From an uncultured Clostridia bacterium (GTDB lineage Bacteria; Bacillota; Clostridia; Oscillospirales; Acutalibacteraceae), in assembly GCA_947166625.1 (NCBI GenBank), contig CAMVEX010000008.1:1-64000 (forward strand): 64,000 bases of DNA. Reading direction: 5' to 3'. Shown in pieces: positions 6,041 through 45,376 of this stretch (position 1 is its first letter; every line of letters begins with the position of its first letter). The position numbers were made by a program, and so were the translations under genes. The notes beneath the pieces are model-generated. The model was not told the origin of the DNA, did not search any database, and saw only the letters and a list, made by a program, of their open reading frames with translations.

Positions 6041-8968
6041 GTGAAAAAAACAGCCATCAAATCTTTATCCGTATTGCTTTGTTTTCTGATAATAGGCTCC
6101 GCGTTTTCCGGATTATTTGCCTATGCCGCCGAAGGCGATCATGTAAGCGGCTCATTCACTTATACCCTGGATGAAAGCAATATGGCTACGATCAAAAAGC
6201 TTGACAGCGCCGTTACCGGGAGCGTGATAATTCCGCAAACGATAGACGGCTATCCGGTCATTGCTATCGGAGAGTCTGCTTTCAAAAACTGCACTTTGAT
6301 CACTCAGCTCACATTCTATCCGTCAATAAAAAGCGTCAAGGCTTCATTCAAGGATCTCACGGCGTTGGAAAGATGCTATTTTGTGGGAGAACTTGCTCAA
6401 TGGTGTTCCGTAGATTTCAGCGGAGCAGACTGCAACCCATATTCTGTCACGGACAAAGTCTATATTGACGGCAGAATCATTACGGGCATAAATCCTTCCG
6501 ATATAGCCGGAGCGGAAAGAATAGGAAGATATGCCTTTGCCGGCTGTTCGGGTCTGAATTATGTTGAGCTTCCGGGCAGTGTTAAGACCTTGGATACCGG
6601 CTGCTTTTATAATTGCGAAAATCTGACATACATTTTGCTTGAAGGAGTTGAAACGATCAATTCAAGTGCTTTCGGCAATTGCAATGGAATTAAAGAGATT
6701 CAATTACCTGCGAGTGTCAGCTCTGTTGCTGACGGTGCGTTCTCTCACTGTAAGAACATCGAGCATATCGGCGTAGATGAACATAATCCGGTAATTAAAG
6801 CCTGCGGAGATTGTCTTATCAAAGATGATACTCTTATCCTCGGCTGCAAAAACAGTGTTATCCCCGCGGATATGGGTATCAAAACCATTGCTTCGCTGGC
6901 GTTTTCCGATTGTGTGGGGCTTGAGAGAATAGATATACCCGAAGGTGTAGTTTCCATAGGAACATACAGTTTTTGGTATGAAACTACCACCATTGAGCTT
7001 TATAGATTATCAAAAGACAGAGGCGCATTTTTAAATTGTGTTAATCTCAGAGAGGTAAATCTTCCGGAGAGTCTTACATATATTTGCGGCGGATCCTTCA
7101 GAGGATGTTCCTCTCTTAAAGAGATAACACTTCCGAAAAATCTTAAGCATATCGGATATGCGGCGTTCGCAAATTGCACCTCACTTGAAACATTTATCTA
7201 TAATGCCGAAAGTGTCGAAAGGGTCAACACATCGTCTTCAGGTTTTTTTGATTCTGTTTTTGAAAATGATTCATTACTTAAAAACCTCGTTTTCGGAAAA
7301 GCGGTAAGGGTTATCCCGAAAACTTTATTCAATGATCTTGCTTCGGTTGATACCATAACACTGTATAATACCGTTGAAACCATAGATGACAAATCATTTG
7401 ACGGCACCGATAAATATTCAAAAATCAATTTTTACGGAACTCCCGAGGAATGGCTGGAAAAATATAACAAGTATTTTGACAGCACCTCTTATGTCCGCGA
7501 TATCTATTATCTTGCGGGAACCTGCGAAAAAACAGATGACCCTACCGATGTGACCGTGCGCTATGAATACGGCACCTTCGGCACTCCGAATGACAGTGAG
7601 CTCAATCTCGTGGTAGAGGATATAAACGCCAATGACAGCCGCTTCAGCTCATTCAAGGCCATAATCGACGGCAATCAGTATGCGCTTTACGCGATCCACA
7701 TGACTGATAATGACAACAATGATATGCAGCCGGTCGAAGAAAATCAGGTGAATATCAAGATCCCCGTTCCCGCCGGTGTTTCGATAAATGCATACAGCAG
7801 CGTATATATCCATCACAGAAAGGCGGACGGCACCACAGAGAGAAAGAAATACTCCACCGGAGATCTTTTGATCGAAGACGGTTATTTCATTTTTGATGTA
7901 GGCTCATTCAGCGAATTCGCTATCTGCGTTGATGACGGAGGAGAGCATGTTGACTCCGACGGCGATCATATCTGCGATATCTGCTCAGAGAGTCTGACCT
8001 ATTCCGCAAAGCTGATTATCGACGGAAAGACCTATGATATAATTTATCATTACGGCGATACCGTGATCGAAAATCTGCCCGAGGTCCCTGAAAAAGCCGG
8101 ATATACCGGTGAATGGGAATATACCGTCAACGGCAGCGACCTTGATATAAAACCCGTTTACACACCGATAACCTATTACGCAACGTTTGTTGCCGACGGC
8201 ATACAGGTCGGAGATAAAATCCCCTTTACCGTTGAGGATAAATCTATAACCGAACCGGCGGTGCCCGAAAAAGAAGGACACTCCGGAAAATGGAGCGCCT
8301 ACACTCTTGCCGCCTGCGATATTACCGTGACCGCAGTCTATGAAGAAAGCCATTCTCACACGTATTCATCGCAGATAACCAAAAAGCCCTCCTGCACGGA
8401 AAAGGGAGAGAGGACTTTCACCTGCTCCTGCGGTGACAGCTATAAGGAAGAGATCTCCGCGCTCGGACACAGCTTCACAAATTATAAATATAACAATGAC
8501 GCCACAACAGAAAAAGACGGCACCGAGACCGCGAAATGCGACCGCTGCGACGCAACGGATACAAGGACGGCTGCCGGCACGAGGCTGAAGCCCGACAGCC
8601 CTGTCAATCCCACCGCAGGCGCAAAAATAAATGTGGCCGGAACAGCGACCCTCAGTTACAGAACGAAGGTTACGGTGAGGGCGACCGCAAGCAACCTTGA
8701 CCGCGGATACAGCCTTGTTCTCGTTGTCAACGGCAAAGAATACCGCGGAAACAATGTTGAGGTTTCTTCCGATGAATTTGAGCTTAAGAGCGATGTGAAC
8801 TATTATGTTAAAATCGTTGATTCGGGCGATCAGATTCAAAAGGACGCAAGCGGAAACGAGCTCAGAAAAGTCGGCACGATTAAGTGCAACGCCGGCTTCT
8901 TCCAAAAGATCATCGCCTTCTTCCAGGGCCTGTTTAATGCGCTTCCCGAGAAAAAAGTCCAGCCGTAA
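6041..8968 (+). CDS. BspA-type leucine-rich repeat surface protein
   Basis: GTG 6041 is preferred over 5993: CGGAGGT lies 10 nt upstream, and it gives a clean signal peptide (KKTAIKSLSVLLCFLIIGSAFSGLFAYAAEG). Residues ~40-490 are LRR_5/BspA-like repeats (IGESAFKNCTLITQL, IGRYAFAGCSGLNYVELP and so on). A beta domain follows, then two InlB B-repeat-like units (YSAKLIIDGKTYDIIYHYGD... and its partner), then Cys-paired modules (CTEKGERTFTCSCGDSY). The last ~110 residues carry the module also left as a remnant at 3800-4093, ending in the amphipathic GFFQKIIAFFQGLF. There is no LPXTG, so retention may depend on that terminal helix. Such proteins bind host or bacterial surfaces; this one's ligand is unknown. 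Confidence 0.85.
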   Translation: MKKTAIKSLSVLLCFLIIGSAFSGLFAYAAEGDHVSGSFTYTLDESNMATIKKLDSAVTGSVIIPQTIDGYPVIAIGESAFKNCTLITQLTFYPSIKSVKASFKDLTALERCYFVGELAQWCSVDFSGADCNPYSVTDKVYIDGRIITGINPSDIAGAERIGRYAFAGCSGLNYVELPGSVKTLDTGCFYNCENLTYILLEGVETINSSAFGNCNGIKEIQLPASVSSVADGAFSHCKNIEHIGVDEHNPVIKACGDCLIKDDTLILGCKNSVIPADMGIKTIASLAFSDCVGLERIDIPEGVVSIGTYSFWYETTTIELYRLSKDRGAFLNCVNLREVNLPESLTYICGGSFRGCSSLKEITLPKNLKHIGYAAFANCTSLETFIYNAESVERVNTSSSGFFDSVFENDSLLKNLVFGKAVRVIPKTLFNDLASVDTITLYNTVETIDDKSFDGTDKYSKINFYGTPEEWLEKYNKYFDSTSYVRDIYYLAGTCEKTDDPTDVTVRYEYGTFGTPNDSELNLVVEDINANDSRFSSFKAIIDGNQYALYAIHMTDNDNNDMQPVEENQVNIKIPVPAGVSINAYSSVYIHHRKADGTTERKKYSTGDLLIEDGYFIFDVGSFSEFAICVDDGGEHVDSDGDHICDICSESLTYSAKLIIDGKTYDIIYHYGDTVIENLPEVPEKAGYTGEWEYTVNGSDLDIKPVYTPITYYATFVADGIQVGDKIPFTVEDKSITEPAVPEKEGHSGKWSAYTLAACDITVTAVYEESHSHTYSSQITKKPSCTEKGERTFTCSCGDSYKEEISALGHSFTNYKYNNDATTEKDGTETAKCDRCDATDTRTAAGTRLKPDSPVNPTAGAKINVAGTATLSYRTKVTVRATASNLDRGYSLVLVVNGKEYRGNNVEVSSDEFELKSDVNYYVKIVDSGDQIQKDASGNELRKVGTIKCNAGFFQKIIAFFQGLFNALPEKKVQP

Positions 8969-8988
8969 TATACCAATCGCGTGAATTC

Positions 8989-9017
8989 ACCCGCAGATGA
9001 GCCTTTCATCTGCGGGT
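8989..9017 (+). terminator. Terminator hairpin after the LRR gene
   Basis: ACCCGCAGATGA, 5-nt loop, TCATCTGCGGGT: a perfect 12-bp stem 20 bp past the stop codon, with a T-rich stretch shortly after. Confidence 0.8.
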
Positions 9018-9077
9018 TATGATTTTTATGCCGGGCGATTGCAGTATATAGCACACATTTCATTTTTATTGTTGTAA

Positions 9078-9186
9078 AGTGATATTTACGCCATTGGCGT
9101 AGGTGATGCAGTTTGCTTTGCAAACACAGTGATGTGCTTAACTCACTTGCCGAAGCACGCATCATTTGCCCGAAAGGGTAAACATC
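9078..9186. repeat. Cluster of short palindromes (interspersed-repeat type)
   Basis: Several small perfect hairpins sit in tandem: TACGCC-ATT-GGCGTA, GTTTGC-TTT-GCAAAC, TGATGTGCTT...AAGCACGCATCA, and TTTGCCC-GAAA-GGGTAAA. They are separated by GTGATG/CATCA-type links. Arrays of GTGATG-plus-hairpin units occur between genes in many gut Oscillospiraceae; I recall this as a general pattern and have not searched for it. No coding capacity. Confidence 0.55.
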
Positions 9187-9190
9187 ATTG

Positions 9191-9218
9191 AAAAAAGCAT
9201 CCCGAAGGATGCTTTTTT
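9191..9218. terminator. Bidirectional terminator between LRR gene and tRNA-Arg
   Basis: AAAAAAGCATCC-CGAA-GGATGCTTTTTT, a perfect stem flanked by A and T runs. It ends right before the tRNA's CCA on the minus strand, so it is the tRNA terminator and may also stop readthrough from the plus strand. Confidence 0.85.
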
Positions 9219-9219
9219 C

Positions 9220-9296
9220 TGGCCCGCCGGAAGGGATTTGAACCCCCGGTCTTCGGAATCGGAATCCGATGCATTATCCAGCTATGCTACCGGCGG
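9220..9296 (-). tRNA. tRNA-Arg (anticodon CCG)
   Basis: Folded by eye from the reverse complement. Acceptor CCGCCGG/CCGGCGG, D-stem GCAT/ATGC, anticodon stem TCGGA/TCCGA with loop TTCCGAT (anticodon CCG, reads CGG), 5-nt variable region, T-arm GGGGG-TTCAAAT-CCCTT, discriminator G, and an encoded CCA. All arms pair, with two G-U pairs in the T-stem. It stands alone between a terminator and a low-information spacer. Confidence 0.93.
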
Positions 9297-39772: not shown

Positions 39773-40900
39773 TTATTTCCTTTTTGATATCAATTCTTGA
39801 ACTCGCTGTTTCCGTTTGATGAGATCTTCAGAAGGACCGTCATTCCATTTTATGTTTTGGATTTCTTTTTCAATTACTCTTAATTCTTCTTCATACATTT
39901 TGTATTTTCTAAGTATAATACAGGCATCACGATATACCGCTGGCATATCCGCGTGCTTATTAATAGCAATATAGAAATATACAAGAGCTTCTTTTAATTT
40001 GTTTTGTTCTTTCAAATCATAGCCCTTAGATGCCCATTTGAATGCGTCTCCGGGCTTTTTTGACTCGGATTCAATGAATTCTTTTTTCTTGTTTATAAAA
40101 TCAATTACATCTTCAGCAGAATCATTATTTGCTTCATTCAGGTTTTTTGTTTTATCTTCATTAGCGGAATCAACGCCAAACCTTCTTTTTTCTATACCGC
40201 CAACAACCGATTTCCAATTTGTGCCGTCGCCCTTCAACAACTTGTTAATATACCAAACATTAAACTGCTCACCGAAAGTATCATCCTCGGTTGTTTTGTG
40301 AGGGCTTCTAGCCATATAAGGTATATATGAGTTTATGCTTAATTCATCTTGTCCAAGTTCAGTTAATTCATATTTGGGAACATATGAATCTATTATTATT
40401 CTTTCTTCTGGTATTTGCTGCTTGATTCGTTCAATTAACTCTTCTTTTTTTCCTGAACTATCTAAGCCATTAGCAGAAAGAATTTTTTTCAGTTCATCAG
40501 CCTTAAGCGAATTCAAATATGAAGATTTGGGTGCCCATCTTAAAAAGCCGCGTTGTTCCAGTGATTTGAGAGCATTTCCAACATCTCTTATTCCATATTC
40601 AAACCACCATAATCCAGGATAGCCTGTTTTTGGCTTCGGATATTTACCTTTATTACAATAATCAAGTAGCATTACCTCAGCTACATAAAGTCCACGGGGA
40701 GTAGGATATGAAATCTTTTTTCGTTCATCAAAAGTGATGACTTTTCGCGCCATTTCAGTTCCAGGATATGAATAGAAAGTATAATAATTATCCGGCTGAT
40801 AGAACTCCCTTTCATCAGGGGAGATCGTGCTTGAATCGGCATATCTAAATTGACTAGAAGATGCGACCGCTTTGTTTTTAAATAAATCAAATAGTTTCAT
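39773..40900 (-). CDS. SAP-domain and TPR-like protein of unknown function
   Basis: 375 aa from ATG 40900 (GGAGGG 5 nt upstream; the track ATG at 40915 contains that site). The N-terminal ~110 residues are beta-rich with YFEYGIRDV-type sequence (PGLWWFEYGIRDVGNALKSL). A SAP-like helix-extended-loop-helix follows at ~130-163 (LKADELKKILSANGLDSSGK and KEELIERIKQQI), a fold that usually binds DNA. The C-terminal ~90 residues resemble TPR helices (GYDLKEQNKLKEALVYFYIA). It lies at the island's left end, in an AT-rich minus-strand operon with the next two genes. It may be a defence or mobile-element accessory gene; the function is not recognised. Confidence 0.7.
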   Translation of the reverse strand: MKLFDLFKNKAVASSSQFRYADSSTISPDEREFYQPDNYYTFYSYPGTEMARKVITFDERKKISYPTPRGLYVAEVMLLDYCNKGKYPKPKTGYPGLWWFEYGIRDVGNALKSLEQRGFLRWAPKSSYLNSLKADELKKILSANGLDSSGKKEELIERIKQQIPEERIIIDSYVPKYELTELGQDELSINSYIPYMARSPHKTTEDDTFGEQFNVWYINKLLKGDGTNWKSVVGGIEKRRFGVDSANEDKTKNLNEANNDSAEDVIDFINKKKEFIESESKKPGDAFKWASKGYDLKEQNKLKEALVYFYIAINKHADMPAVYRDACIILRKYKMYEEELRVIEKEIQNIKWNDGPSEDLIKRKQRVQELISKRK

Positions 40901-40914
40901 TTTACCCTCCTGCA

Positions 40915-41151
40915 TTATGTGTCATATTTGTTATAGATGCCATCTTTGTTTGCAGATACAATTTCTGGGTATTTTGAAATCAGTTTGCTGTCAAAGTTTC
41001 TTTTACCATAACTGTATTCGGTATGGAGCGACCATCCCAATTCCCCGGAAACACTAGTAATATCAAAGTGAGCAGCAATTTCCTCTATTCGTAAAGGAAC
41101 GCTTTTCGGATATTGCTGGTTATGATATTTTATCATTTCAAAAGATGTCAT
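40915..41151 (-). CDS. Hypothetical protein (78 aa)
   Basis: ATG 41151 has TTTGGAG upstream; the track's TTG 6 bp earlier is less likely. The sequence (FEMIKYHNQQYPKSVPLRIE...) begins with a helix followed by a short helix-turn-helix-like segment, RIEEIAAHFDITSVSGELGW, and ends with polar residues. It resembles the small domain-like proteins that accompany SAP/TPR genes, but no family is recognised. It ends 12 bp before the SAP gene's ribosome binding site. Confidence 0.6.
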   Translation of the reverse strand: MTSFEMIKYHNQQYPKSVPLRIEEIAAHFDITSVSGELGWSLHTEYSYGKRNFDSKLISKYPEIVSANKDGIYNKYDT

Positions 41152-41179
41152 TATCAAACTCCAAATGTGTTTAGCGTCC

Positions 41180-41683
41180 CTATTTCTTTTCTATTTTAGG
41201 AAAGTCAATATCAGAATCGCCGCCGAGAATAGTTGCGAATACACCTATAACAGTAACAGCGGCGGCTGCACCTATGGCGGCCATCGTAGCAATGAACTTT
41301 TTATTTTCAGAATCTTTCATGCCCATACGGTCATGTACTTCAAGCATCTCGCCTATTATTATCTGTTTTTCATCAAATGATAAATCGTCTTTTTCTAATT
41401 CATTTTGCAGGGTTGTTATGATGCTATTGCACACATCATAATACTTCATAACAACCTCTGCATTATCATTTAACGCTTTGTCGAGAGTTTCCTTGTATGC
41501 TGTAATGATTTCCTTTGATTCATTTGAGAAATTTGGAAATTGTTCAAGTGCTTTTTTGGCAACTTCCGGATCCATCTTATCTAACATCGTTGCTAGTTTT
41601 ATTACGTGTTCTTTTTTTAGATGCCGAAAATCAGGTATTTCAAGTTTCTTGAGCGCTTTTTCCTCTGACAAAGGTTTAGCCAT
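41180..41683 (-). CDS. Small protein with C-terminal membrane helix
   Basis: 167 aa. GGGAGGG precedes the ATG. The first ~130 residues are charged and helical, probably coiled or bundled (LSEEKALKKLEIPDFRHLKK, EVAKKALEQFPNFSNESKEI). One C-terminal helix at ~133-152 (FIATMAAIGAAAAVTVIGVF) is followed by a short polar tail, so it is tail-anchored. First gene of the minus-strand island operon, with its own promoter. A membrane-linked helper in a defence operon is one reading; no family is recognised. Confidence 0.65.
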   Translation of the reverse strand: MAKPLSEEKALKKLEIPDFRHLKKEHVIKLATMLDKMDPEVAKKALEQFPNFSNESKEIITAYKETLDKALNDNAEVVMKYYDVCNSIITTLQNELEKDDLSFDEKQIIIGEMLEVHDRMGMKDSENKKFIATMAAIGAAAAVTVIGVFATILGGDSDIDFPKIEKK

Positions 41684-41828: not shown

Positions 41829-42833
41829 ATGAATTACATCGGATCAAAATTTTCGCTTTTAGATTTTCTGCAAAATACTATAGATGAAGTTACGGGTATT
41901 ACCGATTATTCTGCTACTGTTTTTGCAGACTTGTTTGCCGGCACAGGTGTAGTAGGTGCAACATATAGGAAAAAAGGTTGTAAAGTAATTTCCAATGATA
42001 TTCAATATTATAGTTTCATTATAAACAAATACCTTATAGAAAATGAGCATAGTCCGGATTTGAGCTTGTTTGATTATTTGAATGAGCTAAAAGGTATAGA
42101 AGGTTTTGTATATAAGAATTATTGTGAAGGCTCTGGTAGTGGAAGAAATTATTTTACAAATAGCAATGGCAAGCGTTGTGATGCTATCCGAACAGAAATT
42201 GAAAAACTATTTATAGAAAAAAAGATAAACGAAGAAACATATTATTGCTGTTTAGCCGGACTCATTAATTCAATTGATAAATACGCAAATACCGCTTCAG
42301 TATATGGAGCTTTCCTTAAACACATAAAAAAATCTGCTCAAAAAGATTTTATCTTGGAACCTATTCCAGAGATTAAAGGTACAAAGGGAATCGTATATAA
42401 TAAAGATATAAACGAACTCGTAAAATCCATATCTGGTGATATTCTTTACTTGGACCCGCCATATAACGCAAGACAATATTGCACCAATTACCACGTTTTA
42501 GAAACAATTGCAAAGTATGACAATCCGATTTTAAATGGTGTAACCGGGTTGCGTGATTATAAAGAACAGAAAAGCGAGTATTGCTCCCGCCGAACAGTAA
42601 AGCAGGTATTTGATGATCTGATTAAAAATGCTGATTTCAAATACGTTTTCTTAAGCTATAATAATGAAGGATTAATGTCGTTTAGTGATATTCAAGAAAT
42701 AATGTCAAAATACGGCTATTACAAACAGTTCAGTCAGGAATATAAACGTTTTAAAGCAGATAAAGATGAGAACCGAAATATAGCGGCTAATTCGACAACG
42801 GAATATTTGCATTGCTTAATTAAGGAGAAATAA
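41829..42833 (+). CDS. D12-class adenine-specific DNA methyltransferase
   Basis: 334 aa from ATG 41829 (CCGGAG 10 nt upstream); the track start extends through the promoter. D12/alpha-class order: N-terminal MNYIGSKFSLLDFL, motif I FADLFAGTGVVGATYRKKG (~35-53), a variable target region in the middle, and catalytic motif IV ILYLDPPYNARQY (~205-217), followed by LSYNNEGLMS. It transfers methyl from AdoMet to N6 of adenine in a specific DNA site. The second methyltransferase follows 3 bp later and two nucleases are encoded convergently, so it is the modification part of a restriction system. The target sequence is unknown. Confidence 0.92.
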   Translation: MNYIGSKFSLLDFLQNTIDEVTGITDYSATVFADLFAGTGVVGATYRKKGCKVISNDIQYYSFIINKYLIENEHSPDLSLFDYLNELKGIEGFVYKNYCEGSGSGRNYFTNSNGKRCDAIRTEIEKLFIEKKINEETYYCCLAGLINSIDKYANTASVYGAFLKHIKKSAQKDFILEPIPEIKGTKGIVYNKDINELVKSISGDILYLDPPYNARQYCTNYHVLETIAKYDNPILNGVTGLRDYKEQKSEYCSRRTVKQVFDDLIKNADFKYVFLSYNNEGLMSFSDIQEIMSKYGYYKQFSQEYKRFKADKDENRNIAANSTTEYLHCLIKEK

Positions 42834-42836
42834 TAG

Positions 42837-43624
42837 ATGTCAAGATACAACGACATTGATTTATCAAAATGGCAAGAATATACAGATATTAATACCGACT
42901 CACTTTGGATTATTAACAGGCGTGATAACTCGGGAGCTCATTCTGGAAGCTATCACGGAAATTTTGTGCCTCAAATTCCACATCAGCTTTTCTCAAGATA
43001 TACTAAAAAAGGCGATTGGATACTTGATCCCTTTGCCGGAAGCGGAACCTCATTAATTGAGGCACAAAGAATGGGAAGAAATTCTATCGGTATTGATATT
43101 CAAGATTCAGTTGTTAAAGAAGCACAAGAAAGAATTGTTGCTGAAAAAAACCGGAATGTCGGACCGAATTATATATTGGCGACAGTTCAAAAGTTGATAT
43201 TGATTTATTATTAGCTGACAACGGCATTAAAAAAATTCAGTTTTTAATTCTTCATCCTCCATACTGGGATATAATTAAATTTTCAGATAACCCCGATGAT
43301 TTGTCAAACACCGACTCGCTTCAGGAGTTTCTTGATGGTTTTGGAAAAGTGATTGACAACACAATAAAGGTCCTTGAAAAAAACAGATATTGTGCTGTTG
43401 TTATCGGTGATAAATATGCTAACAGTCAAGTCGTTCCTCTTGGCTTTCATTGTATGAACACAATGCTTCAAAGGGGTCTTTTATTAAAAGCAATTTTAGT
43501 TAAAAACTTTGGCGATACAAAAGGAAAATCAAATCAGCAAGCAATATGGAGATACCGGGCACTTGCAAGTGATTTTTATATTTTCAAACACGAATACATT
43601 TTTGTGTTCAAAAAAGTAAAGTGA
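42837..43624 (+). pseudogene. Second DNA methyltransferase, interrupted by a -1 frameshift
   Basis: The first ORF (42837-43214) gives WIINRRDNSGAHSGSYHGNF, FVPQIPHQLFSRYTKKGDWI and motif I LDPFAGSGTSLIEAQRMGRN. It then breaks after NYILAT. In the frame shifted by one, the protein goes on SKVDIDLLLADNGIKK, motif IV ILHPPYWDIIKFS, then VIGDKYANSQVVPLGF, to the stop at 43622-43624. One missing G near 43185 (ACAGTTC instead of ACAGGTTC) explains it. N6-adenine/N4-cytosine MTase superfamily, motif I before motif IV. A real lesion would leave one strand or site unmethylated, so either the cognate nuclease is dead, the break is a base-call error, or a ribosomal frameshift repairs it. Confidence 0.85.
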
Positions 43625-43650
43625 CGAGATAATCGCCACTTTATTTTTTA
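43618..43650. terminator. Bidirectional terminator between methyltransferase and nuclease genes
   Basis: AAAGTG-ACGAGATAATCGC-CACTTT with T-runs on both sides, between convergent genes. Confidence 0.75.
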
Positions 43651-44778
43651 TATATATTTTTCAAATAAAATGTTTTGGGCCGTTGTATTGAAACCGATAT
43701 ACTCTAAAGGACTGACTGTAGCACCGGAAATATTAAAACTAAAATTTTTATACAAATTGGTAATATCGGCTGGTATATTCCCTTTTGCTATTACAGTCGG
43801 AATAACGCGAATGTTTTTTAATTTATAATTTGGAATCACATAATCACTTAACCACTCTAAATACCAAACAATTTGAGAGGTTACTATGCTTTCATAAGGC
43901 GCCTCATCTTTGAGTTCCACTAATCGAATAATAACATCGTTTTTTGTCTCTTGTTTTATCATAATATCAATTCTTTGCATGCCGACACCACAAGAGACCT
44001 CGTTGCCAATCCAATAATTTTTAATGCTTTGATTAATCAAGAGCTTAGCTAATTGGCCTTTATCAAAATTTTGAGTGATAAACGCTTGAAGATGTGTCTC
44101 AAAGGCCTTATTATTATTTGCTTTAAATAAAAGCCGTGGCAGAATATTCAATGATTCTTTTCTTCCATTATATATTTGATTTTCAGAACTTTTAACTATT
44201 TTATTTAATGAACTATCAAAGGTAAGACTGTTTGAAGTCATTGTTACCCTATTGTTTTTTATTCTTAATTTTTCTAATAAATCTTCATATTCATAGTCCA
44301 TTATCATTGTGCAGCCGCGGTTACCTTTTAGTTTTCGATATATTAAACTCCAGCACAAATCGCTTGCCTTAGATTTCCCTTTTAAAGAATCTAAATACTC
44401 GTGTTCGGTGACTCCGTTGGGATAAACCTCATATGGTTTTATACATATTCTATAAGAAAGGCCTTTGCCAGTTTGTAATTTTAAATAGTTGTCGCCGTCA
44501 TTTTCATCAAAAAAAGGCAATGAAGCTACTTTAAACACACCAAAAAACTGGCCTTGATTGCCTCCTGATGCTTGTAAATAAAAAATCACATTATCATCAA
44601 TGCGAATTCTTGATATGTCGGCTATCATACCGACTAAGTTCCTTTCGGTAGTTGAATTAACCGATGCTGTTGAATTTGATAGAAACTCTGATTTTTTATC
44701 TTTTGCGCCGGTCCCAGCAAACATATATTCAAGATGATACTTAAAAGTGGTTGAATCAACAATAAAAACATGTGTCAT
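43648..44778 (-). CDS. Putative restriction endonuclease (EVE/PUA-like plus PD-(D/E)XK-like)
   Basis: 376 aa. GGAGAAATAAT precedes the ATG. N-terminal ~110 residues (THVFIVDSTTFKYHLEYMFA, NVIFYLQASGGNQGQFFGVF) look like an EVE/PUA-type module; members of that superfamily read DNA bases in some restriction enzymes. The C-terminal part has a possible PD-(D/E)XK core: IDIMIKQETKNDVIIRLVEL, then KDE, giving D-x(n)-E-x-K (about residues 265-285). Both assignments are pattern-based. It lies 1 bp after the HNH gene and convergent to the methyltransferases, so it is the probable restriction subunit. Target and cleavage mode unknown. Confidence 0.7.
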   Translation of the reverse strand: MTHVFIVDSTTFKYHLEYMFAGTGAKDKKSEFLSNSTASVNSTTERNLVGMIADISRIRIDDNVIFYLQASGGNQGQFFGVFKVASLPFFDENDGDNYLKLQTGKGLSYRICIKPYEVYPNGVTEHEYLDSLKGKSKASDLCWSLIYRKLKGNRGCTMIMDYEYEDLLEKLRIKNNRVTMTSNSLTFDSSLNKIVKSSENQIYNGRKESLNILPRLLFKANNNKAFETHLQAFITQNFDKGQLAKLLINQSIKNYWIGNEVSCGVGMQRIDIMIKQETKNDVIIRLVELKDEAPYESIVTSQIVWYLEWLSDYVIPNYKLKNIRVIPTVIAKGNIPADITNLYKNFSFNISGATVSPLEYIGFNTTAQNILFEKYI

Positions 44779-44779
44779 A

Positions 44780-45376
44780 TTATTTCTCCTTTAAGTGTCT
44801 TCTGAATTCAATCGGGTCATACCAAAAGCACCCAACGCACGCGTCCTCTTCATTATTGTGATGTGCGCCACCTTTGTAGTATGACATCGGATATCCTAAT
44901 TTTTTTGCGTCGTACCTAATTCCTGTTCTGCGACATTCTTTACAGAATTGCCTTTTTGCATCGTTGGCAGCTTTACTCAATGGTTGAAAATCTGAAAGAC
45001 GCTGGTCTTCGTTTTTCATTACCCGGTCTTCGTTTTTCATGCCGTTCTTATGGTCAACCTCCGGGTTTGACGTGCCTAATACAACACAGCGTTGCGCTGA
45101 TATTTCTCTTTTAATTGCCGGACTTATATGTTGTGAATAATCGCCCTGATTCAGACCATTTAACCTAATGCGATCAATGCCATTTCCAGGCGTGATACTT
45201 TTATCAAACTCAATAATGTATTTTTTTGCAAGTGTGGATTCTTTTCGTGCCCAAGAAGCCCCGTTCCCAAATTTTAAGTCGGCATATTCCCCAACAAACT
45301 CATTTGTGCTTATCCATCTGCTAATACCATTACTGTCGGGTTGAGCTAATTTTAAGAATAATTCTGTCTTTGTCAT
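44780..45376 (-). CDS. HNH endonuclease (restriction-type)
   Basis: 198 aa from ATG 45376 (AGGAGG 7 nt upstream); the track start is 18 bp further upstream. The C-terminal half shows an HNH/beta-beta-alpha-metal pattern: QRCVVLGTSNPEVDHKNGMKN, FQPLSKAANDAKRQFCKECR, then YYKGGAHHNNEEDACVGCFW with Cys pairs that may bind zinc. The sequence style is that of HNH type II restriction enzymes. It is the first gene of a two-gene nuclease operon with the EVE/PD-(D/E)XK-like protein. Either could be the cleaving enzyme and the other a second subunit; pairing with two methyltransferases suggests an asymmetric recognition site. Confidence 0.8.
   Translation of the reverse strand: MTKTELFLKLAQPDSNGISRWISTNEFVGEYADLKFGNGASWARKESTLAKKYIIEFDKSITPGNGIDRIRLNGLNQGDYSQHISPAIKREISAQRCVVLGTSNPEVDHKNGMKNEDRVMKNEDQRLSDFQPLSKAANDAKRQFCKECRRTGIRYDAKKLGYPMSYYKGGAHHNNEEDACVGCFWYDPIEFRRHLKEK

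What the first reader, a model, noticed from the sequence alone, without database searches (positions are those of the whole stretch)
41829..45376. Two methyltransferases, an EVE-like/PD-(D/E)XK-like nuclease and an HNH nuclease
Two different methyltransferases with two convergently placed nucleases suggest a type II system with an asymmetric site, or two systems. The nuclease with an EVE/PUA-like N-terminus could read modified bases.
Basis: partly seen in the sequence, partly recalled or inferred. Interest (0 to 1): 0.6.

Follow-up and report, generated by a model that had tools for sequence, protein, structure and literature searches.

The report
CATG restriction module with EVE-domain nuclease
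Four neighbouring genes in a gut bacterium (two DNA-marking enzymes and two unrelated DNA-cutting enzymes) form one recurring mix-and-match restriction-modification module that probably guards the sequence CATG; one cutter carries a domain normally used to sense chemically modified DNA bases, which makes it an unusual and testable kind of restriction enzyme.

Summary
Window 41829-45376 carries two methyltransferase genes facing two nuclease genes inside a 33% GC island. M1 is a D12 adenine methyltransferase. M2 is an N6/N4 methyltransferase, split here by one frameshift. The HNH nuclease belongs to the ICEA/NlaIII family. The 376-aa protein is a confident EVE/YTH-PD-(D/E)XK fusion (AlphaFold pLDDT 93) with all active-site residues invariant in 36 relatives. 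The asymmetric-site reading is not supported. M2 resembles DpnA, the second methyltransferase of DpnII cassettes, which acts on the same palindrome as its partner. ICEA enzymes cut CATG, and CATG is depleted in genomes that carry the module (0 seen of 95 expected and 1 of 128 in two of them) compared with 11 controls (p = 2e-4). In 43 relatives the EVE nuclease almost always occurs with M1 and/or M2. The other nuclease is swapped or absent, and the nucleases and methyltransferases combine freely. Best reading: one mix-and-match CATG restriction-modification module with two structurally unrelated nucleases sharing the same protecting methyltransferases. Whether the EVE nuclease cuts unmethylated CATG (favoured) or modified phage DNA (rival) is open. 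No description of this association was found in the papers searched.

The parts
41829..42833 (+). M1: D12-class adenine-N6 DNA methyltransferase, 334 aa, DPPYN motif (inferred CATG)
   Evidence: PF02086 E=3e-44; PADLOC MTase_II E=3e-108; 48-71% identical to 33 homologues in related modules, DPPY invariant
42837..43214 (+). M2 N-terminal piece: DpnA-like N6/N4 methyltransferase up to the frameshift
   Evidence: PF01555 E=4e-16; PADLOC PDLC03351 E=3e-50
43169..43624 (+). M2 C-terminal piece in another frame, with the HPPYWDIIKFS catalytic motif; intact single genes of 260-270 aa in relatives
   Evidence: alignment across the junction
43648..44778 (-). EVE nuclease: N-terminal EVE/YTH (PUA-superfamily) domain about 1-175, variable linker 176-220, C-terminal PD-(D/E)XK domain 221-376 (E227, D271, E288-x-K290, Q302)
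   Evidence: AlphaFold2 pLDDT 92.9; Foldseek to PH1033, THYN1-5mC DNA, YTHDF2 (N-term) and R.BspD6I small subunit (C-term, weak); catalytic residues invariant in 36 sequences
44780..45376 (-). HNH restriction endonuclease of the ICEA/NlaIII family, 198 aa (EVDHKNG motif)
   Evidence: PF05315 E=4e-69; 63-86% identical to 20 homologues in related modules

Best explanation
The locus is one restriction-modification module aimed at the palindrome CATG. M1 methylates the adenine of CATG in double-stranded DNA. M2 is a DpnA-like helper methyltransferase for the same site, dispensable and broken in this genome. The ICEA-type HNH enzyme cuts unmethylated CATG, as its relatives NlaIII and H. pylori IceA1 do. 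The EVE-PD-(D/E)XK protein is a second, structurally unrelated restriction nuclease that depends on the same two methyltransferases for self-protection: most likely it also acts at CATG sites lacking the host mark, with the EVE domain serving as base-flipping DNA reader, and so gives a back-up cutter that an inhibitor or base modification aimed at the HNH enzyme would miss. Shown here: gene content, folds, invariant active sites, recurrence, interchangeable parts and CATG depletion in hosts. Inferred: who methylates what, cleavage, and the EVE nuclease's exact trigger.
For: CATG depletion (Markov observed/expected): ICEA carriers 0.62 (this genome), 0.31, 0.00 (0/95), 0.32, 0.01 (1/128); one HNH2 carrier 0.27; 11 control genomes 0.61-1.35; one-sided Mann-Whitney p=1.6e-4. 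ICEA is the CATG family (PMC2816704). M2 is homologous to the DpnA-like gene of Dam + DpnII cassettes (hhalign 100%, 36% identity; DpnII PF04556 E=7e-83). M1 and M2 distances correlate at 0.90-0.96. EVE nuclease tied to M1/M2: 39 of 43 EVE loci have M1 and/or M2 beside them; where EVE stands apart (L029, L027) M1, and once M2, lie elsewhere in the same genome. Two-gene M2+EVE operons with no other nuclease (L045, L232). EVE+M1+M2 without HNH (L010, L011, L014, L023). A more distant EVE-like PD-(D/E)XK protein occupies the nuclease slot of a Dam/DpnA-like cassette (G671/G717). Flanks of loci with EVE but no HNH found also lack CATG (33 seen, 102 expected, in the EVE+M1 or EVE-alone group).
Against: EVE and YTH domains characterised so far in nucleases read modified bases (5mC/5hmC in VcaM4I, PMC7897488; m6A in T. 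gammatolerans McrB, cited in PMC7641849), not unmodified sites. Two enzymes with one specificity look redundant. EVE is only loosely co-inherited with M1, M2 and ICEA (r 0.31-0.39) and diverges faster (44% against 66-69% mean identity). CATG in loci with EVE+M1+M2 but no HNH is only mildly low (77/113 = 0.68) and within the control range. Other 4-mers (GATC, GGCC, CTAG) are also depleted in these bacteria, and this window's own genome (0.62) sits at the edge of the controls. No biochemistry.
Confidence: 0.55

Rival explanations
1. Type II plus type IV in one module: M1, M2 and the HNH enzyme form a CATG restriction-modification system, and the EVE nuclease is a modification-dependent enzyme that cuts phage DNA whose hypermodified bases protect it from the HNH enzyme.
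For: EVE/YTH fold with invariant aromatic residues in the domain (F20, W143, Y147). EVE-PD-(D/E)XK proteins were predicted to be type IV enzymes (PMC7641849 section 9). Complete ICEA+M1+M2 systems exist without EVE (L095), so EVE is an add-on there. Fast evolution and loose co-inheritance.
Against: A type IV enzyme needs no methyltransferase, yet EVE is nearly always with M1 or M2, even as a two-gene M2+EVE operon or with the genes scattered in one genome. It must not read the marks made by M1/M2.
Confidence: 0.3
2. Heteromeric restriction enzyme: the HNH and EVE proteins are two subunits that each cut one strand, with the EVE protein as recognition subunit, as in BtsI/BsrDI-like split enzymes.
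For: The two nuclease genes are adjacent in most ICEA loci; two-subunit type IIS enzymes exist (BtsI, PMC2909958 abstract).
Against: Each nuclease occurs without the other (L095, L092, L094; L010, L011, L014, L023, L045, L232). The HNH is replaced by an unrelated enzyme (P14) or a divergent HNH. ICEA homologues cut CATG alone (literature).
Confidence: 0.07
3. Two methyltransferases for the two strands of an asymmetric site.
For: Two methyltransferases of different classes next to nucleases.
Against: M2 is DpnA-like, from same-palindrome systems; CATG depletion; M2 is broken or missing while nucleases and M1 are intact in the window, L015, L032 and L093.
Confidence: 0.04

Closest known systems
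NlaIII / H. pylori IceA1-HpyAI CATG restriction-modification systems
   Same: ICEA-family HNH nuclease (PF05315) with an adenine methyltransferase; CATG signature in hosts
   Different: Second, DpnA-like methyltransferase and an EVE-PD-(D/E)XK nuclease in the same module; swappable HNH enzyme
DpnII system (DpnM, DpnA, R.DpnII; GATC)
   Same: D12 methyltransferase + DpnA-like second methyltransferase + nuclease
   Different: Nuclease is ICEA HNH plus EVE nuclease instead of DpnII; inferred site CATG instead of GATC
EVE-HNH and EVE-PD-(D/E)XK predicted type IV enzymes (VcaM4I; Bell et al. 2020, PMC7641849)
   Same: EVE-type sensor domain fused to a nuclease; EVE-PD-(D/E)XK architecture already catalogued
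   Different: Here embedded in a methyltransferase-containing type II module and almost never found without M1 or M2; the sections of that paper read here describe EVE only with type I systems and stand-alone type IV enzymes

Membership tests
NlaIII/IceA (ICEA) restriction endonucleases | ICEA family profile PF05315 | tested here: met
   E=4e-69, 233 bits against a cut-off of 24
NlaIII/IceA (ICEA) restriction endonucleases | Specificity CATG | tested here: inconclusive
   Strong CATG depletion in related carriers (0/95, 1/128, 0.31, 0.32); only 0.62 in the window's genome; no cleavage assay possible
DpnII-type system | D12 methyltransferase plus DpnA-like second methyltransferase | tested here: met
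   PF02086; M2 profile to the DpnA-like P0018, hhalign 100%, 36% identity; that cassette carries PF04556
DpnII-type system | R.DpnII nuclease (PF04556) | tested here: not met
   No PF04556 match in the window proteins; nucleases are ICEA and EVE-PD-(D/E)XK
DpnII-type system | Second methyltransferase active on single-stranded DNA | not testable with these tools
   Needs biochemistry
EVE-nuclease type IV (modification-dependent) enzymes | EVE/YTH-fold domain fused to a nuclease with intact active site | tested here: met
EVE-nuclease type IV (modification-dependent) enzymes | Works without a cognate methyltransferase | tested here: not met
   39 of 43 loci have M1/M2 adjacent; of the four others two have them elsewhere in the genome and two are cut by contig ends. 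This is a test of gene company, not of activity.
EVE-nuclease type IV (modification-dependent) enzymes | Cleavage needs a modified base | not testable with these tools
   Needs assay on modified and unmodified DNA
Heterodimeric type IIS enzymes (BtsI/BsrDI) | Both nuclease subunits always together | tested here: not met
   HNH without EVE (L092, L094, L095) and EVE without HNH (L010, L011, L014, L045, L232)

The most novel reading that the evidence does not exclude
EVE-PD-(D/E)XK proteins of this family are true type II restriction enzymes: an EVE/YTH domain has been turned from a reader of modified bases into a reader that triggers cutting when the host's own mark is absent, and forms a self-sufficient R-M pair with a DpnA-like methyltransferase. 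In many gut bacteria it is stacked on an NlaIII-like enzyme with the same target, giving two unrelated cutters behind one methyl mark.
Probability: 0.35. Interest if true: 0.8.

Novelty: new variant of a known kind. Interest (0 to 1): 0.57.

Why it matters
If the EVE nuclease restricts unmethylated CATG, it would be the first case known to me of a PUA-superfamily 'modified-base' domain used in a conventional restriction enzyme, and of two unrelated nucleases kept behind one set of methyltransferases. If it instead cuts modified phage DNA, the module is a hard-wired type II + type IV pair that closes the loophole phages open with hypermodified bases. Either outcome is decided by a simple cloning and digestion experiment, and the family is large enough (at least 43 loci, several phyla) for systematic study.

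Tried and rejected
Asymmetric two-methyltransferase site: rejected on M2 ancestry and CATG depletion. HNH-EVE heterodimer: rejected because each occurs alone. Plasmid and phage collections: no relative of the EVE nuclease; IMG/VR gave two with the family profile, none with the single sequence. PDB sequence search with single proteins found nothing useful for HNH, M1 or the EVE nuclease. AlphaFold of the ICEA protein was poor (pLDDT 63) and was not used. M.NlaIII was not available for a direct comparison with M1 (literature search empty). Whether the four-gene set sits on a mobile element was not resolved.

Full report
Observation. The four genes are as described. They lie in an AT-rich island (about 33% GC against about 50% outside), M1 and M2 on the + strand converging on the EVE nuclease and the HNH gene on the - strand. 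Pfam gives D12 methyltransferase for M1, N6_N4_Mtase for both pieces of M2, ICEA for the HNH protein and a sub-threshold EVE hit for the 376-aa protein. M2 is interrupted: frame 1 carries residues up to about 112, another frame carries the rest with the HPPYWDIIKFS motif, and the join falls at TATATAT near 43168-43175; relatives have it in one piece. Whether this is a real mutation or an assembly error cannot be told here.

The 376-aa protein. An alignment of 36 homologues gave a high-confidence AlphaFold model (pLDDT 92.9). Foldseek places the N-terminal part (roughly residues 1-175) with EVE proteins (PH1033 E=5e-6, MJECL36), THYN1 bound to 5mC DNA and YTH domains; the C-terminal part is weakly like PD-(D/E)XK enzymes such as the R.BspD6I small subunit, PaqCI and BamHI. 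The family profile hits PH1033 and MJECL36 by sequence. E227, D271, E288, K290 and Q302 are invariant, as are F20, W143 and Y147 in the EVE domain. So it is an EVE/YTH-PD-(D/E)XK fusion with an apparently intact active site.

Recurrence. A scan of one genome per species with the three-member alignment found 43 loci, mostly Clostridia MAGs from animal guts, also Bacilli, Mucispirillum, Melainabacteria, Alphaproteobacteria and Planctomycetota as labelled. Neighbourhoods show the same gene set in many layouts: ICEA-EVE facing M2-M1 (as here), EVE-M1-HNH2-M2, M1-EVE-HNH2-M2, ICEA-EVE-M1-M2, EVE-ICEA with M2 and M1. ICEA is present in 21 loci and a divergent HNH (HNH2; ICEA PF05315 E=1e-11) in 8. 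In three (L020, L024, L044) the companion nuclease is an unrelated type II-like enzyme (P14, PADLOC REase_II). 39 of 43 have M1 and/or M2 adjacent.

Mix and match. Searches started from ICEA and from M2 rather than from EVE (genes) gave ICEA+M2+M1 without EVE (L095), ICEA+M1 (L094), ICEA+M2+a C5 methyltransferase (L092), M1+M2 alone (L155, L156) and M1+M2+P14 (L154 with a broken EVE, L161). EVE also occurs as a two-gene operon with M2 and no other nuclease (L045; L232 in IMG/VR), with M1 only (L030, L037), and with M1+M2 only (L010, L011, L014, L023). In the genome of L029, EVE, M1 and M2 lie on three contigs; in that of L027, M1 is a solitary gene on another contig. ICEA was not found in those genomes (HNH2 and P14 were not searched genome-wide). 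That nucleases and methyltransferases combine so freely is easiest to understand if all share one target (inference).

Which target. M2's nearest outside relatives sit in Dam + DpnII + DpnA-like cassettes (L163, L165; DpnII E=7e-83; M2 profile against that gene: hhalign 100%, 36% identity). In DpnII systems both methyltransferases serve the same palindrome GATC (established knowledge; PMC3573125 was found but only its abstract was seen). ICEA enzymes cut CATG (PMC2816704). I tested CATG avoidance in samples of whole genomes: ICEA carriers 0.62 (this one), 0.31, 0.00, 0.32, 0.01; an HNH2 carrier 0.27; 11 controls 0.61-1.35; one-sided p=1.6e-4. Two genomes have 0 of 95 and 1 of 128 expected CATG. 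P14 carriers (0.79-0.80) and loci with EVE+M1+M2 without HNH (pooled 0.68) are near the controls; the EVE+M1 or EVE-alone group is low (33/102). Other palindromes (GATC, GGCC, CTAG) are also depleted in these bacteria, so single small samples should not be over-read.

Co-inheritance and rate. M1-M2 distance correlation is 0.90-0.96, M-ICEA 0.59-0.63, EVE with any of them 0.31-0.39; mean identity is 44% for EVE (53% EVE domain, 39% nuclease) against 66-69% for the others. EVE is thus a looser, faster-evolving member.

What the EVE nuclease does. For a conventional restriction role: constant company of M1/M2 even when scattered; M2+EVE operons; and a more distant EVE-like PD-(D/E)XK protein (P0016; hhalign 80%, E=1e-5 to the family) in the nuclease slot of a Dam/DpnA-like cassette without DpnII. 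For a modified-DNA role: the domain's known function in VcaM4I (PMC7897488) and the type IV prediction for EVE-PD-(D/E)XK (PMC7641849). I favour the first, roughly 0.5 against 0.3-0.4, and say plainly that nothing here decides it.

Novelty. Each part belongs to a known family. Their stable combination, and an EVE nuclease bound to type II methyltransferases, was not found in the papers searched; REBASE and subscription journals could not be searched, so the proteins may be listed there as putative enzymes.

Noticed in passing
L164 (G671) 6431-9245 and L168 (G717) 6229-9043: Three-gene cassette Dam-like D12 methyltransferase / 385-aa EVE-like PD-(D/E)XK protein (weak NucS_C) / DpnA-like methyltransferase, with no DpnII: a second family of EVE-type nuclease in an R-M nuclease slot.
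   Followed up: partly
L171 3995-7945 (Haladaptatus plasmid NZ_CP120471.1): Archaeal homologue of that 385-aa protein beside a MutH/Sau3AI-family nuclease and two C5 methyltransferases.
   Followed up: no
L094 7194-7814; also L028, L040, L044: Recurrent ~207-aa protein next to the module (IPFDVKLT motif, PD-(D/E)XK-like by eye) with no significant Pfam or PADLOC match.
   Followed up: partly
L008 4044-5791 and L042 8847-10581: Two extra genes (one DUF262-like by eye, one ~193-aa) inserted between M2 and M1 in two modules: a further possible defence insertion.
   Followed up: no
window 39776-41683: AT-rich neighbours on the - strand: a 380-aa protein with a SAP DNA-binding domain, an 80-aa ORF and a 167-aa protein of unknown function; not conserved with the module elsewhere.
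   Followed up: partly
G480 and G475 genome samples (L200-L203, L208-L211): Near-total absence of CATG (0 of 95 and 1 of 128 expected).
   Followed up: yes
L092 6169-8855: ICEA + M2 next to a C5 methyltransferase fused to an N-terminal helix-turn-helix-like domain, in place of M1.
   Followed up: no
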